64,000 bases of DNA from Methanomicrobiales archaeon (lineage in GTDB: Archaea; Halobacteriota; Methanomicrobia; Methanomicrobiales; Methanospirillaceae), in assembly GCA_012729535.1 (NCBI GenBank), contig JAAYCY010000083.1, positions 1 to 64,000 on the forward strand, given 5' to 3'. The notes beneath the pieces were generated by a model that did no database searches, was not told the origin of the DNA, and worked only from the letters and a program-made list of their open reading frames with translations. Positions 26,174-31,971 of the stretch are shown here, one piece after another (the stretch's first letter is position 1; the number at the start of each line of letters is the position of its first letter). The translations under genes were made by a program, and so were the position numbers.

Positions 26174-28228
26174 CTACGAAATATCAAGGCTTCTGATTAT
26201 TTCTTGAAGATACGGAATCTGGAGAGTATCAGCAATCCACTGTTCCATGAGCAAGGATTCAGGGAGTATCTCTGAAATTGTATCGGACTTTGCAGGTGAA
26301 TATTGAACAAAACCTGCCAGATCTTTCCAATCACAACTTCCAATCCGGACAATACCCTGGATAAACAGGGATTTCTCAATGATCCCGGAAAAAGTAATTT
26401 TATAGATGTCTGATCCCAGATACCGGCATTGATAATTCTTCTCAAAAAAAGTTCCAATGAATTTATTCCAGTTCTTCCCGAGAAAAGTATATAGAACTGT
26501 TCTGTTGTCATCCCATCTGATAGCAAGAGAACTATCAGGCAGGTCAGGAGGAAACTGCTCTTTGAATTTTTTAACATCGTGTATGAGAGAATCAGATAAT
26601 TCAAACGGAAGGGGAACGCCTGCAACTATGCTTCTCAAACCTGAAAGAACAAGCAGACTTACCTCAGCCTGACCTCCGACCCAGTTAGGTGGAGCGGCAC
26701 AAATCCCGGAAGGTGAGACCACTATGGAATCACCTTCTATTTGTCCCGTTTTCTGCCAGACATTTCCCCCAAGAGCAAAACTGGACACATCAGATGATGA
26801 GTAAGGAATAGAGCCAATTTGAATTCCATCAGATGAGATCACCTTCGAAGATGGTTGATCCCCAATCAATGAAAATAAAAAACCAGGTTTTTTACGGATT
26901 TTTTCCATCGTTTCTCCGGGAATTATAAGATCCCCATCCCTCGATATCCATTCATTAACCATGAGATGACGCATAAGGTCCCGGAACGAGTCTTTAGAAA
27001 TATGCTCGTATGGTTTTTCTGCCAGGAGATTATCAAAAACTGTTAATGAAACCCTATACCGGGATATAACCAGCAAAAGGATTTCCCTGGCAAGCAGATC
27101 ATAGGGAAACCGAGGAGAAATAACCGGTTCCACAATCCCCAAAATTGCATTCCGGAGTGCAGATAAGGTATGGCAGGTTTCTTCAGGACTAGCAGAAAGG
27201 AAATACATCAATGGATCTTTCCCACGTCTTCCGGTCCTTCCAAGACGCTGCAGAAAAGAAGAAACAGATCTTGGGGGACCTTCCTGTACTACCAGATCCA
27301 GGTCTCCGATATCAATTCCAAGTTCAAGTGTACTTGTACATAAAACTGCAAACGGCAATCCAAGATGTGTTTTTTCTTCAGTTATCTGCCTGATTTCAGG
27401 TGATATTGAAGAATGATGAACAAAAACATCCGGAATGAATCTTCTTAAAGCTAATGCCAGAACTTCTGTATCTTTCCGGCTTTTACAAAAAACAAGTGAG
27501 CGTTTTCCTTGAAGTGTATGAGAGAGTACTTTGAAAAAATCTGATTTTTCTTTGGAATAAATGTGGAATTCAAAGTTTTTTAATTGCTTTTCACCGGTTA
27601 CCAGGACTCCGTTATTCCTGCCTTTCATCCACAAAAGGATTTCTTCGGGGTTTCCTATCGTGGCAGATAGTCCTATTCTGGTAATTTCAGTGCAATTTTC
27701 TTTTTCTAGATGGTTTAACGCTGAAAGAATCTGCAATCCTCTCAGCGATCCTGCCAGGGCATGCAGTTCATCGATAATGCAATACCTGATAGAAGATAGA
27801 ATAGAAGAGTCCCTTTTGTACAATAAAACCATTAACGATTCAGGAGTAGTGAGAAGAAATACTGGAGAATCAGGAATTTTTTTTAAGGGGGTGTCCCCAT
27901 GAATGACCAGCAGGTCGTAATGTAATGGATTCAGAATATGGGTAAACCGATCTGCAATATCATTGATCAAAGCCTTTAGCGGTGCGATATACAGGCAAAC
28001 TGGTTTTGAATCACAATCACCCTGTTTAATAATCCGATCCAAAACCGGAATAAATGCCGCCTCGCTTTTTCCCCCCGCAGTAGGTGAAATAATCAGCAGG
28101 TCCGAACCAGTCTGAAATCCCTGGTATGCTTTTACCTGAATATCCCGCAGGTCTTCCCACTTCATCCATGATGCAAGGACATACCTGAGCGAGGGATGAA
28201 GATGGGAATATATTTCTTTTTCAACCAT
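26174..28228 (-). CDS. Lhr-like superfamily II DEAD/DEAH helicase
   Basis: This 684-residue protein has Walker A SPTAGGKSEAA (near residue 48), the DELH box in CIIDELHAL, the SATIG motif, and the domain 2 signatures TSTLELGIDIGDLDLV and QRLGRTGRRG. A winged-helix and C-terminal region of about 300 residues follows, as in Lhr-core proteins, although it is shorter than bacterial Lhr. Lhr enzymes unwind DNA or RNA-DNA hybrids and are linked to repair. The gene is convergent with the subtilase (three bases between stops). Its start is about 220 bases from initiator tRNA-Met and 410 from a methyltransferase-like gene on the opposite strand, so it could be part of an accessory system. Confidence 0.85.
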   Translation of the reverse strand: MVEKEIYSHLHPSLRYVLASWMKWEDLRDIQVKAYQGFQTGSDLLIISPTAGGKSEAAFIPVLDRIIKQGDCDSKPVCLYIAPLKALINDIADRFTHILNPLHYDLLVIHGDTPLKKIPDSPVFLLTTPESLMVLLYKRDSSILSSIRYCIIDELHALAGSLRGLQILSALNHLEKENCTEITRIGLSATIGNPEEILLWMKGRNNGVLVTGEKQLKNFEFHIYSKEKSDFFKVLSHTLQGKRSLVFCKSRKDTEVLALALRRFIPDVFVHHSSISPEIRQITEEKTHLGLPFAVLCTSTLELGIDIGDLDLVVQEGPPRSVSSFLQRLGRTGRRGKDPLMYFLSASPEETCHTLSALRNAILGIVEPVISPRFPYDLLAREILLLVISRYRVSLTVFDNLLAEKPYEHISKDSFRDLMRHLMVNEWISRDGDLIIPGETMEKIRKKPGFLFSLIGDQPSSKVISSDGIQIGSIPYSSSDVSSFALGGNVWQKTGQIEGDSIVVSPSGICAAPPNWVGGQAEVSLLVLSGLRSIVAGVPLPFELSDSLIHDVKKFKEQFPPDLPDSSLAIRWDDNRTVLYTFLGKNWNKFIGTFFEKNYQCRYLGSDIYKITFSGIIEKSLFIQGIVRIGSCDWKDLAGFVQYSPAKSDTISEILPESLLMEQWIADTLQIPYLQEIIRSLDIS

Positions 28229-28404
28229 TTTTCATATTGATGAGTTAGTTCTGAATACGAAATAATATCCACACCTTACCTGAAGAAAAATGATTCTGCG
28301 CTGTTACCTATCTTTCCTCTTTTTACTCTGATCCCTTCATGTTCCTTATCCATTCCGACTGTTATGTATATGAAAGAAATTGGAAATGCCATACCGATAA
28401 CACA

Positions 28405-28416
28405 AATTATATATGC
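28405..28416 (+). promoter_or_regulatory. TATA box for initiator tRNA-Met
   Basis: AATTATATATGC lies about 35 bases upstream of the mature tRNA 5' end, as expected for a short 5' leader. Confidence 0.6.
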
Positions 28417-28445
28417 AAATCGGGCAGACATTTATATCCACTTTT

Positions 28446-28520
28446 AGCGAGGTGGGGTAGTCAGGATATCCCGACGGGCTCATAACCCGTAGACCGATGG
28501 TTCAAATCCATCCCTCGCTA
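28446..28520 (+). tRNA. Initiator tRNA-Met (anticodon CAT)
   Basis: A full cloverleaf is present with acceptor AGCGAGG/CCTCGCT and discriminator A. The anticodon stem ACGGG/CCCGT contains three consecutive G:C pairs next to the loop CTCATAA, so the anticodon is CAT. The A1:U72 pair and the GGG/CCC anticodon stem are the hallmarks of archaeal initiator tRNA-Met and exclude an elongator or Ile2 assignment. No CCA is encoded. Confidence 0.93.
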
Positions 28521-28640
28521 TACTCTTTCTGTTTTTTTATTAGTTCTGATGTTAAGATCCCATATTCTGAATTTCCTGAAACCAGACGAAACGTATAGTT
28601 ATAAAAATATTACTCCAGGAATTAATCAGGATTGTTATGT

Positions 28641-30572
28641 ATGCACATTATTACGTCATTTCCTCAAGAAGAAATTATCACAGAAGATCCAGAAATAATC
28701 CTGTCTCTTGACCAGTACCTCGATAATGTCTTTCAACAGGTATTGAGGGTTTTTTACCAGTCATATGGCGAAAGTGAGAAAAGTTCCCGTATTCAGATGA
28801 CACTCTCATCGGTTTTAGAGACGCTGCTTTGGAAGATAGCTGGAAATTATGGGATTTATAGAGAAAGAATCCCTCATAATTCACTTTTTTCCCAACTGGT
28901 TCACCTGGGAACCAGTATTCCCCATTATATGCAGGACACCAGAGTTGTTTCAGCATTTGATACAGGCGTCAGGAAGAACATGATTCATGCCGGACTTACC
29001 GCTCCATTCCCTAATAATCTTTCATGCTTTCATATTGAACCAATTACCATGGTTCGGGCGATTCATCGCCAGATAGTGCAATTAAATATAAGGGAAAGGA
29101 AAAAGCAGGGTGAATATTCTGAAAAAATCTACGATAACTCCTTCCTCACATCCCCAGTCTTTCATCTTGCCAGAAAGAATATTCTTCAAAAACTAACCGC
29201 CGATACTGCAATCATCGATCCTTTTTCAGGTAATGGAGAGTTAATCCTCTTCTTTACAAAATCAGTCTGTGACGGATGTATTGACGCCATCTCGAGGCTT
29301 AAACAAGTATCATCCCGCATTTTCTGTTTAGAACATTCTTCTACTGCTCTTATGACCACCAGGTTTGGTGTTATTTGTGCCATTATCGGACGGGATTTTT
29401 CATCTCCGGTATTATTCAATGAAAATTTTGAAAAAGAGAACTCAGTTATCTGGAATAATATCAAAGTGGGATCTCTGATTTTTACTCCTGAATTAAACCA
29501 GGAATATATATCCGAAGATGAGGGGAAAAATGCAATTAGGAGATACAAACCCCTCAATGAAACCTGGCCGGTTATTCCACAAGGTCTAAAGGGCATACTG
29601 GTAACCTGCCCATCTGAACAGAGTGATCTTACACCTCCTGAAATCCGGCAGTTTCTCTGTAAACATTTTCAGTCTTACTCTCCAGAATTTCAGCCTTCTC
29701 TCATCGCTTCTGAAAAATTGCTCACTGATTTTATCTATCCAACGTACATCTTCATCCGAAAAACCTGGCTTTCAGACATTAATTCGGAACCATTCAGGAA
29801 ATGGGTGAGGAAAACCAGAATTAAGAGTATTGTCATCGATAGCACTGGTGGAAGTTTCCAGGATGGATCATGGACCTGCTTAATTGGTGACGATAATAAA
29901 CCTGAAATACAAGTCACAAAGATAGATTTCAATGGTAAAATAACCAGATTCAGGGTTGAAAAATCCTCCTTGCCAGAGACTGGGGGCTGGAACCTTGATG
30001 ATCCGATTTCTTGTGAACTTTTGGACCTAATCAGAAAGGATTCTATACCATTGGTAGATTATTGTCTTGGAGCCCTTTATCAACCAGGTCAGATTCTCTC
30101 TTCAGGAAAAGAAGAAATCTGGATATCTTTGATAACAGAAAACGTAAAATTTATTGTAAGTTCAGGCCTGGAACCAAAACCTGATGCTGCAGTCATCATT
30201 AAAGGACCGGATATGTTCCTGCAAGCCCTGTTATCATCTTCACTGATTCAATGGTACTGGAAAAATTTTGCTTGTTCAGAGGATTTAGAGAATAATAACT
30301 ACCATATTTCTCATCTTCCAGTCAGACAACCGGACTGGTATGACGATAACGAGAGGGATATTATCTGCCAGTTAACCCGATGGATGCAGACCAGGACAAA
30401 TCTTATACAAAAACTGGAATATGCCCGGTCGCATCATGATATTTCAAGAATTCAGAAGGCTCTGGACCAGGTAGAGAAAAAACGTGATGAACTAGTCTGC
30501 ATATTATATCGTATTCCGGAAAACCTCAGAGAATGGGTACTAATAAAACAGGAGAACAATTCATTTCTTTAA
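28641..30572 (+). CDS. Eco57I/TaqI-type methyltransferase-like protein lacking catalytic motif IV
   Basis: About 643 residues are encoded from ATG 28641; TTG 28632 is the other possible start. Motif I is clear, IIDPFSGNGEL (about residues 190-200). The following segment, IFCLEHSSTALM, carries the expected motif II acidic residue. Where N6-adenine methyltransferases have NPPY, this protein reads ILVTCPSEQ, so catalysis is doubtful. The C-terminal half resembles a TaqI-type target-recognition domain (LLSSSLIQWYWKNFA and HLPVRQPDW) ending in a coiled coil. It may be a DNA-binding pseudo-methyltransferase or a degenerate type IIG restriction enzyme. It sits next to tRNA-Met and a divergent Lhr-type helicase. 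A TATA-like TTATAAAAATA lies at about 28599-28609. Confidence 0.62.
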   Translation: MHIITSFPQEEIITEDPEIILSLDQYLDNVFQQVLRVFYQSYGESEKSSRIQMTLSSVLETLLWKIAGNYGIYRERIPHNSLFSQLVHLGTSIPHYMQDTRVVSAFDTGVRKNMIHAGLTAPFPNNLSCFHIEPITMVRAIHRQIVQLNIRERKKQGEYSEKIYDNSFLTSPVFHLARKNILQKLTADTAIIDPFSGNGELILFFTKSVCDGCIDAISRLKQVSSRIFCLEHSSTALMTTRFGVICAIIGRDFSSPVLFNENFEKENSVIWNNIKVGSLIFTPELNQEYISEDEGKNAIRRYKPLNETWPVIPQGLKGILVTCPSEQSDLTPPEIRQFLCKHFQSYSPEFQPSLIASEKLLTDFIYPTYIFIRKTWLSDINSEPFRKWVRKTRIKSIVIDSTGGSFQDGSWTCLIGDDNKPEIQVTKIDFNGKITRFRVEKSSLPETGGWNLDDPISCELLDLIRKDSIPLVDYCLGALYQPGQILSSGKEEIWISLITENVKFIVSSGLEPKPDAAVIIKGPDMFLQALLSSSLIQWYWKNFACSEDLENNNYHISHLPVRQPDWYDDNERDIICQLTRWMQTRTNLIQKLEYARSHHDISRIQKALDQVEKKRDELVCILYRIPENLREWVLIKQENNSFL

Positions 30573-30594: not shown

Positions 30595-31971
30595 ATGATA
30601 ATCCGGCAGTTTTTCATCCCTGGTATTGCTCATAATTCATACCTTCTTGGTGGGGTTTCATCCTGTTTTATCATCGATCCTGCCCGTCATCCTGAACCAT
30701 ATCTTCTTGCAGCAGAAGAAGAAGGATTTGAGATAACCGGCATTCTGATAACACACCTTCACGCAGATTTCATCTCCGGCCACCTTGAACTGCACCATCT
30801 GACAAGTGCTCCGGTTTATGCTCCCAAACAAGCAAACTGCATCTTCCCTCATGTCCCTGTTAGAGAAAACAGTGAAATTATTCTTGATAACTGTAGTATC
30901 AAGGTCATTGAGACTCCAGGTCATACTCCTGAACATGTAAGTTACCTGGTAACCCATAGAAGCAGAGGAGAAGACCCGGTAGCGCTTTTTCCCGGTGATA
31001 CTCTGTTTGTCGGGGATGTAGGAAGGCCTGACCTTTTTCCAGGTCGTGCCCATGAACTGGCATCTGCATTGTTCACATCACTTCATGAAAAAATACTACA
31101 GCTGCCAGATTATTGTGAAGTATACCCTGCGCATGGAGCAGGATCTTTTTGTGGAAGAGCGTTATCATCAAAGAGAACGACAACTATCGGGTATGAACGA
31201 AGGAATAACCCGGCACTACAAACCATAGATCGTAACACATTCATCCATGAATTAACCGAAAACATGCCACCTTCTCCTGACCATTTTAGCAGGTGTTCTG
31301 ATACGAATAGAATTGGCCCTGCACTTCTCTCGACACTCCCCAAAATTCGTCCCTTTAATTCACGGGAGTTGGAAAAGATACTGTCTGATAACTGCTGTGA
31401 GATTGTCGATATCCGAAGGTATGACGCGTTCGGCTCTGTTCATATTCCAGGTAGCTGGAATCTGGATGGGGAATTAAATTTTTCAACTTTTGCAGGCTGG
31501 GTTCTTCCACCTGATCGTGACATCATCCTTGCAGTACATAATCAGGATGACATTCCCGGTATCATAAAAAAATTCCAACGGGTAGGCCTTGACAGAATTA
31601 TTGGATTTGTATTGGGAGGAGTTCAGAAATATGCATTAGCAGGAAAGAGAACCGGGAATATTAGAACAATATCTGTTCATGAGCTTAAAGATCTCTTATC
31701 TACCGATAAAAATGTGCAAGTCCTTGATGTACGGACATGGGAAGAATATGCAGGTTCACACATCCCTGGCTCAATCAATATCCACTGGCCTGATCTACGG
31801 ATAGACTATGTGAAACTAACAAAAGATAATCCAATTGCTGTGATTTGCGGGACTGGTTCCCGCTCAGGTTTTGCATGCAGTATCCTGAAAAGAAACGGTT
31901 TTTCTGATTTATTCAATATAGCCGGAGGATTCACAGGATGGATTGCTGCAGGTTTTGGCGACGGAAATTAA
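30595..31971 (+). CDS. Metallo-beta-lactamase-fold sulfurtransferase with two rhodanese domains (ETHE1/CstB-like)
   Basis: This 458-residue protein has an N-terminal MBL domain (1-230) with the THLHADFISGH metal motif, the ETPGHTPEHVSY motif and the PGDTLFVGDVGRPDLF signature of the persulfide dioxygenase (ETHE1) family. Two rhodanese domains follow. The first (about 250-355) lacks a catalytic cysteine (AVHNQ at that position). The second (about 362-455) has the active-site loop CGTGSRSG. Such proteins oxidise or transfer persulfide sulfur in reduced-sulfur detoxification. The gene follows the methyltransferase-like gene by 22 bases with an AAAGGTAG-type ribosome-binding site, so they may be co-transcribed, although a functional link is not obvious. 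Confidence 0.88.
   Translation: MIIRQFFIPGIAHNSYLLGGVSSCFIIDPARHPEPYLLAAEEEGFEITGILITHLHADFISGHLELHHLTSAPVYAPKQANCIFPHVPVRENSEIILDNCSIKVIETPGHTPEHVSYLVTHRSRGEDPVALFPGDTLFVGDVGRPDLFPGRAHELASALFTSLHEKILQLPDYCEVYPAHGAGSFCGRALSSKRTTTIGYERRNNPALQTIDRNTFIHELTENMPPSPDHFSRCSDTNRIGPALLSTLPKIRPFNSRELEKILSDNCCEIVDIRRYDAFGSVHIPGSWNLDGELNFSTFAGWVLPPDRDIILAVHNQDDIPGIIKKFQRVGLDRIIGFVLGGVQKYALAGKRTGNIRTISVHELKDLLSTDKNVQVLDVRTWEEYAGSHIPGSINIHWPDLRIDYVKLTKDNPIAVICGTGSRSGFACSILKRNGFSDLFNIAGGFTGWIAAGFGDGN

What the first reader, a model, noticed from the sequence alone, without database searches (positions are those of the whole stretch)
26174..30572. Lhr-type helicase and a catalytically altered DNA-methyltransferase-like protein around tRNA-Met
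A divergently transcribed Lhr-like helicase and a 643-residue protein with SAM motif I (DPFSGNGEL) and a TaqI/Eco57I-like recognition domain, but no NPPY motif IV, flank initiator tRNA-Met. tRNA genes are common integration sites. If catalysis is lost, the protein may mark or read DNA without methylating it, so the pair could be an undescribed defence or repair module.
Basis: partly seen in the sequence, partly recalled or inferred. Interest (0 to 1): 0.66.

Follow-up and report, generated by a model that had tools for sequence, protein, structure and literature searches.

The report
Dead restriction-modification enzyme kept by Methanospirillum
Beside the initiator tRNA gene of a Methanospirillum archaeon sits a gene descended from a DNA cutting-and-methylating enzyme that has lost its catalytic parts yet is still kept intact by selection, with its cofactor-binding pocket preserved; the neighbouring helicase gene is an unrelated long-standing neighbour, not its partner.

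Summary
The 643-aa protein folds as a gamma-class N6-adenine methyltransferase (CamA Z 17.6; also PglX, MmeI, DrdV). Motif IV is altered in all 10 Methanospirillum homologues read and in one other genus. SAM motif I and the motif II acid are kept in every one. The target-recognition domain has shrunk to about 56 residues from 109-181 in NPPY enzymes. Full-length relatives keep a nuclease-fold N-terminal domain without catalytic residues; the window copy has lost it. The gene is under purifying selection (omega 0.21-0.37) and sits in fixed synteny. Best reading: a domesticated, dead Type IIG restriction-modification protein that probably still binds SAM and acts as a scaffold or regulator. Its function is inferred, not shown.

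The helicase pairing fails: of 121 genomes searched, 73 carry this helicase without the protein, and three Methanospirillum genomes keep the protein without the helicase. Helicase-thioredoxin-tRNA-Met is older synteny; no integrase or defence neighbourhood was found.

In passing: in other Methanomicrobiales, 28 of 28 related ~800-aa nuclease-less proteins also have altered motif IV, while ~1050-aa relatives keep NPPY, pointing to a wider family of catalytically altered methyltransferases.

The parts
28641..30572 (+). Pseudo-methyltransferase gene, 643 aa (P0001): domesticated dead Type IIG-like protein
   Evidence: purifying selection
28689..29105 (+). N-terminal helical domain (residues 17-155), like the HsdM/PglX N-terminal bundle
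   Evidence: AF2 model; alignments to HsdM and PglX from residue ~16
29217..29240 (+). SAM motif I, DPFSGNGE (residues 193-200); D193, P194, G197, G199 invariant
29331..29333 (+). Motif II acid E231 (D/E in every homologue), expected SAM-ribose ligand
29604..29621 (+). Altered motif IV, TCPSEQ (residues 322-327) in place of NPPY
30048..30215 (+). Shrunken target-recognition region, ~56 residues instead of 109-181
30345..30506 (+). C-terminal long helices (residues 569-622) with lineage-specific HDxxRI (H599, D600, R603, I604)
28599..28611 (+). TATA-box-like TTATAAAAATATT upstream of the gene's ATG
   Evidence: sequence; inference
28445..28521 (+). Initiator tRNA-Met (CAU); ancient neighbour, not an integration site on present evidence
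26174..28228 (-). BrxHI/Lhr-like SF2 helicase without detectable Lhr Domain 4; widespread neighbour, not a partner
30595..31971 (+). Metallo-beta-lactamase/rhodanese gene, conserved downstream neighbour

Best explanation
The protein is a domesticated, catalytically dead descendant of a single-chain Type IIG-like restriction-modification enzyme (gamma-class N6-adenine methyltransferase core). Shown by sequence: motif IV is gone, the recognition domain is mostly deleted, and the N-terminal domain of full-length relatives (PD-(D/E)XK-like topology in the model) has no conserved catalytic residues; the window copy has lost that domain. Also shown: SAM motif I and the motif II acid are kept in all, the gene is inherited vertically in Methanospirillum and one related genus, and it is under protein-level purifying selection. 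Inferred: it still binds SAM (or SAH) and works as a non-enzymatic scaffold or SAM-responsive regulator through its helical N-terminal and C-terminal surfaces, in a housekeeping rather than a defence role. The helicase is a neighbour by old synteny, not a partner.
For: Fold: the AF2 model (pLDDT 74.9) matches CamA Z 17.6, PacII M, MmeI, DrdV, BrxX/PglX and M.TaqI. Motifs: 10 of 10 genus copies and G017 lack NPPY, while D193, P194, G197, G199 and a D/E at 231 are kept in all. Recognition region 54-57 aa in genus copies, 65 in G017, 109-181 in NPPY enzymes. The M. hungatei MAG copy model has an N-terminal alpha-beta-beta-beta-alpha-beta-beta domain (residues 5-95), and the whole chain aligns to Type IIG DrdV from model residue 3 to 726; no conserved D or ExK in its alignment. 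Selection: omega 0.21-0.37; in the closest pair 110 amino-acid differences against 149+-6 expected without selection, with no stops against 7.5 expected. Synteny lysS-PEGA-S8-(helicase)-thioredoxin-tRNA-Met-gene-MBL-IF2 in the genus. The gene tree joins the 10 genus copies (100/99) and G017 with them (100/100).
Against: SAM binding and absence of activity were not measured. The gene evolves faster than all neighbours compared, which could also fit slow decay. Some copies carry a Pro-Cys at the old motif IV (APCR, CPCG), so another chemistry is not fully excluded, though the Cys is not conserved. Models have moderate confidence from only 7 aligned sequences. The nuclease-fold reading of the N-terminal domain rests on topology and one long alignment; profile comparison with IIG nuclease domains gave nothing.
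Confidence: 0.6

Rival explanations
1. It is still a methyltransferase, with a changed motif IV and a different substrate (RNA, protein or another base).
For: The SAM pocket motifs are fully conserved; the first proline of NPPY is invariant; five of ten genus copies have Pro-Cys there, as m5C enzymes do.
Against: The residues around the invariant proline vary (TCPSEQ, TAPCRQ, TAPSGH, SCPEGK, SCPDGK), so no nucleophile or base-flipping side chain is conserved. The recognition domain is mostly gone.
Confidence: 0.15
2. It forms a defence or repair module with the divergent helicase.
For: The genes sit close in the window and in G001, G002, G004, G008 and G017. The helicase's best profiles are defence helicases, BrxHI and SngC.
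Against: Helicase without the protein in 73 genomes; protein without a detected helicase in G003, G009 and G006. The helicase stands by thioredoxin and tRNA-Met in genomes that lack the protein. PglZ does not track the helicase. The neighbourhood is housekeeping.
Confidence: 0.05
3. It is a functionless relic in slow decay.
For: Fastest-evolving gene of the neighbourhood; domain loss in the window copy; catalytic motifs gone.
Against: Open frames without stops in the genus genomes, omega 0.21-0.37, far fewer amino-acid changes and no stops against neutral expectation; conserved SAM motifs.
Confidence: 0.08
4. It is a non-catalytic subunit or regulator of the cell's own active methyltransferases, for example by dimerising with them or competing for their partners.
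For: The N-terminal bundle matches the HsdM/PglX N-terminal domain. NPPY-bearing IIG relatives occur in the same genome (G000 C15 and C42). METTL14-type pseudo-methyltransferases are a precedent (general knowledge).
Against: NPPY-bearing IIG relatives are scattered, whereas this gene is fixed in the genus; at E<=1e-60 only G000 and G006 of the genus match the related profile. No co-location.
Confidence: 0.12

Closest known systems
Type IIG / IIL restriction-modification enzymes (DrdV, MmeI, BpuSI; Eco57I family)
   Same: Single-chain layout and order of domains; gamma-class methyltransferase fold; the full-length genus copy aligns to DrdV over model residues 3-726.
   Different: No catalytic residues in the N-terminal domain (absent in the window copy), no NPPY, recognition region ~56 aa instead of 109-181.
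BREX methyltransferase PglX/BrxX
   Same: N-terminal helical bundle, methyltransferase core and C-terminal helices; model aligns 18-643 to BrxX 1-922.
   Different: No PglZ, BrxC or other BREX genes nearby; no NPPY; about half the length.
CamA / M.TaqI / M.BseCI gamma-class N6-adenine methyltransferases
   Same: Best fold match (CamA Z 17.6); motif I and motif II acid kept.
   Different: Catalytic motif IV altered in all members; recognition domain mostly lost.
METTL14-type pseudo-methyltransferases (from general knowledge)
   Same: Methyltransferase fold kept without catalysis.
   Different: METTL14 has lost SAM binding and has a known catalytic partner; here SAM motifs are kept and no partner is known.
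BrxHI / Lhr-like helicases (for the neighbour gene)
   Same: SF2 core; strong match to PADLOC BrxHI (2e-115) and SngC (5e-99).
   Different: Not in a BREX or Shango locus; nearly universal in three families of the order beside housekeeping genes.

Membership tests
Type IIG restriction-modification enzyme | PD-(D/E)XK nuclease active site at the N terminus | tested here: not met
   Domain absent in the window copy; in relatives no conserved D or ExK; nuclease-like topology only
Type IIG restriction-modification enzyme | NPPY-type motif IV | tested here: not met
   Altered in 10/10 genus copies and G017
Type IIG restriction-modification enzyme | Full C-terminal target-recognition domain | tested here: not met
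   ~56 aa against 109-181 aa in NPPY relatives; no TaqI_C hit
Gamma-class N6-adenine DNA methyltransferase | Overall fold with N-terminal helices, Rossmann core and C-terminal scaffold | tested here: met
   CamA Z 17.6, 408 residues; MmeI, PglX, TaqI
Gamma-class N6-adenine DNA methyltransferase | SAM motif I and motif II acid | tested here: met
   Motif I D, P, G, G and a motif II D/E present in all genus copies and G017
Gamma-class N6-adenine DNA methyltransferase | Catalytic (N/D/S)PP(Y/F/W) | tested here: not met
   TCPSEQ here; none canonical in the family
Gamma-class N6-adenine DNA methyltransferase | SAM binding and methyl transfer measured | not testable with these tools
   Needs purified protein
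BREX system | PglX plus PglZ/BrxC in one locus | tested here: not met
   Window genes are housekeeping; PglZ lies elsewhere and does not track the helicase: G003 has PglZ without helicase, G004, G008 and G014 the reverse
Lhr-core helicase (aLhr1/aLhr2) | SF2 core motifs | tested here: met
   DEAD and Helicase_C domains; motifs PTAGGKSE, DELH, SATI, QRLGRTGR
Lhr-core helicase (aLhr1/aLhr2) | Domain 4 (PF08494) | tested here: not met
   No hit at E<=1; fits the 'Lhr-like' group of PMC8301817
Helicase-methyltransferase two-gene module | Obligate co-occurrence | tested here: not met
   73 helicase-only genomes; 3 protein-only genomes
Mobile island at tRNA-Met | Integrase, direct repeat of the tRNA end or patchy presence | tested here: inconclusive
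   No integrase recognised among the neighbours read and presence is not patchy in the genus; attachment repeats were not searched

The most novel reading that the evidence does not exclude
Methanomicrobiales repeatedly turned single-chain restriction-modification enzymes into vertically inherited, non-catalytic SAM-binding proteins: a ~640-780 aa form in Methanospirillum and a ~800 aa nuclease-less form in other genera (28 of 28 without NPPY). They may act as SAM-dependent sensors or DNA-associated regulators, a non-defence class of pseudo-restriction proteins.
Probability: 0.3. Interest if true: 0.7.

Novelty: new variant of a known kind. Interest (0 to 1): 0.5.

Why it matters
Orphan DNA methyltransferases that persist by vertical descent are known in archaea, and a survey of archaeal restriction-modification genes lists persistent orphan methyltransferases for this order without mentioning inactive forms (PMC10609329). 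Here a restriction-modification scaffold persists without its catalytic site but with its cofactor pocket. That makes a clean question testable: what does a SAM-binding methyltransferase fold do when it cannot methylate? It also warns that genes annotated as restriction-modification methylases in these methanogens may not methylate anything.

Tried and rejected
Helicase-methyltransferase module: rejected by distribution. BREX or Shango system: rejected, no partners nearby. Mobile or viral origin: no relatives in viral contigs or phages, no island signs; attachment repeats not searched. m5C-type catalysis through a motif IV Pro-Cys: rejected as family-wide because the Cys is not conserved. I first took the motif II acid for lost; checking the alignment column by column showed a D/E in all, which reversed that view. 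Profile comparison of the N-terminal ~130 aa with IIG nuclease domains gave no significant match; the nuclease-fold reading rests on the model. Pfam, PHROGs, NCBIfam and PDB sequence searches gave no firm family for the protein. Paper searches found no description of this family, but only open-licence papers are held.
Full report
What is there. The window holds a minus-strand 684-aa SF2 helicase (26174-28228), tRNA-Met(cat) at 28445-28521 and a plus-strand 643-aa ORF at 28641-30572 with DPFSGNGEL and no NPPY. Pfam finds nothing in the ORF; NCBIfam and PADLOC give only weak methyltransferase hits. The surroundings are housekeeping genes (lysS, IF2 and others), with no integrase or defence locus recognised; one weak PADLOC subtilase hit falls on the S8 peptidase. 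Related contigs are named Methanospirillum stamsii and M. hungatei, so the genus is Methanospirillum.

Distribution. Relatives of the ORF occur in 10 of the 11 other genomes of the genus and, beyond it, clearly in one genome of another genus, G017; the only genus genome without a hit is 75% complete. In 393 genomes drawn across the phylum only this genus and G017 match at 1e-15. The gene has a fixed place: lysS, PEGA, S8 peptidase, helicase, thioredoxin, tRNA-Met, gene, MBL-rhodanese, IF2. The window genome has lost the thioredoxin and the first ~100 residues of the gene.

The helicase is not a partner. The short helicase is in 80 of the 121 genomes searched (matches at 1e-65 or better, my count), 73 of them without the gene. 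G003 (single contig), G009 and G006 have the gene and thioredoxin but no short helicase in that slot or elsewhere in the search. In G014, G018 and G022, which lack the gene, the helicase still stands by thioredoxin and tRNA-Met. PglZ does not track it. Its best profiles are BrxHI and SngC, and no Lhr Domain 4 was found; it fits the 'Lhr-like' group of PMC8301817.

What the ORF is. The AF2 model (mean pLDDT 74.9) matches CamA (Z 17.6, rmsd 5.2, 408 residues), PacII M, HsdM, MmeI, DrdV, BrxX/PglX and M.TaqI. In sequence, motif I residues D193, P194, G197 and G199 are invariant, and the motif II position is D or E in every homologue with residues there. Motif IV, aligned to NPPY of full IIG enzymes, reads TCPSEQ, TAPSGH, TAPCRQ, TAPCRK, SCPCGQ, SCPEGK or SCPDGK; only one proline is invariant. 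The recognition region measures 54-57 residues in the genus, 65 in G017 and 109-181 in NPPY enzymes. A full-length relative (M. hungatei MAG, mean pLDDT 73.8) has an extra N-terminal domain, helix 5-15, strands 22-31, 37-45, 50-55, helix 64-77, strands 81-86, 89-95, the order of a PD-(D/E)XK core, and the whole chain aligns to Type IIG DrdV from residue 3 to 726. No catalytic residues are conserved there, profile comparison gave no support, and that part of the model is only moderately confident (pLDDT about 53-68). So the protein looks like a IIG enzyme whose methyltransferase, recognition and nuclease parts have all lost their working residues.

It is kept by selection. Omega is 0.21-0.37 in the closer pairs, higher than for any neighbour compared. 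In the closest pair there are 110 amino-acid differences against 149+-6 expected without selection, and no stops against 7.5 expected. The tree puts the 10 genus copies together (100/99) with G017 as sister (100/100), apart from the five NPPY IIG enzymes.

Expression (inferred). In G010, G001, G009 and G003 the ATG lies about 19-24 bases after the tRNA with no TATA box between, so tRNA and gene may share a transcript; in the window a TATA-like TTATAAAAATATT at 28599-28611 lies about 30 bases before the ATG.

Mechanism. Shown: kept SAM motifs, lost catalytic motifs, selection, synteny; the fold is predicted. Inferred: SAM or SAH binding, and a scaffold or SAM-responsive regulatory role. Invariant residues specific to the lineage, such as HDxxRI in the C-terminal helices, suggest a conserved interaction surface there.

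Wider family. A profile of ~800-aa relatives finds many more in the order. Of the 30 best, 28 have frames of 780-888 aa and none has NPP(Y/F/W); the two with frames of 1044 and 1077 aa have NPPY. Recognition regions in the members measured are mostly full length (about 150-165 aa; L053 is short), so they may still read DNA.

Novelty. No paper in the held library describes this; coverage is limited to open licences. I rate it a new variant of a known kind.

Noticed in passing
L150-L178 (other Methanomicrobiales genera): 28 of 28 ~800-aa nuclease-less methyltransferase-like proteins have altered motif IV (NPPEG/NPPDG, NLPDG, APPPY, CPPER and similar), mostly with full-length recognition regions in those measured; ~1050-aa relatives keep NPPY.
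   Followed up: partly
28522-28640; L079 722-742; L073 10525-10549; L078 3816-3840: In relatives the gene's ATG lies about 19-24 bases after initiator tRNA-Met, suggesting a joint tRNA-mRNA transcript; the window copy has its own TATA-like box instead.
   Followed up: partly
28229-28640: The window genome has lost both the thioredoxin gene and the N-terminal domain of the protein, on the two sides of the kept tRNA-Met.
   Followed up: partly
G000:C15:881-3412 (partly in L062): A Type IIG restriction-modification gene of the same genome is interrupted by one in-frame TAG.
   Followed up: no
L077, L078, L060: The M. hungatei-like group (G003, G009, G006) lacks the BrxHI-like helicase from an otherwise unchanged locus.
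   Followed up: partly
L147, L148 (G005:C29 and C312): One MAG carries a second, partial copy of the gene at a contig end; a true duplicate or contamination.
   Followed up: no
1421-1496: S15-Methanomicrobia ribosomal protein leader (Rfam RF03137) upstream of the gene at 1572.
   Followed up: no
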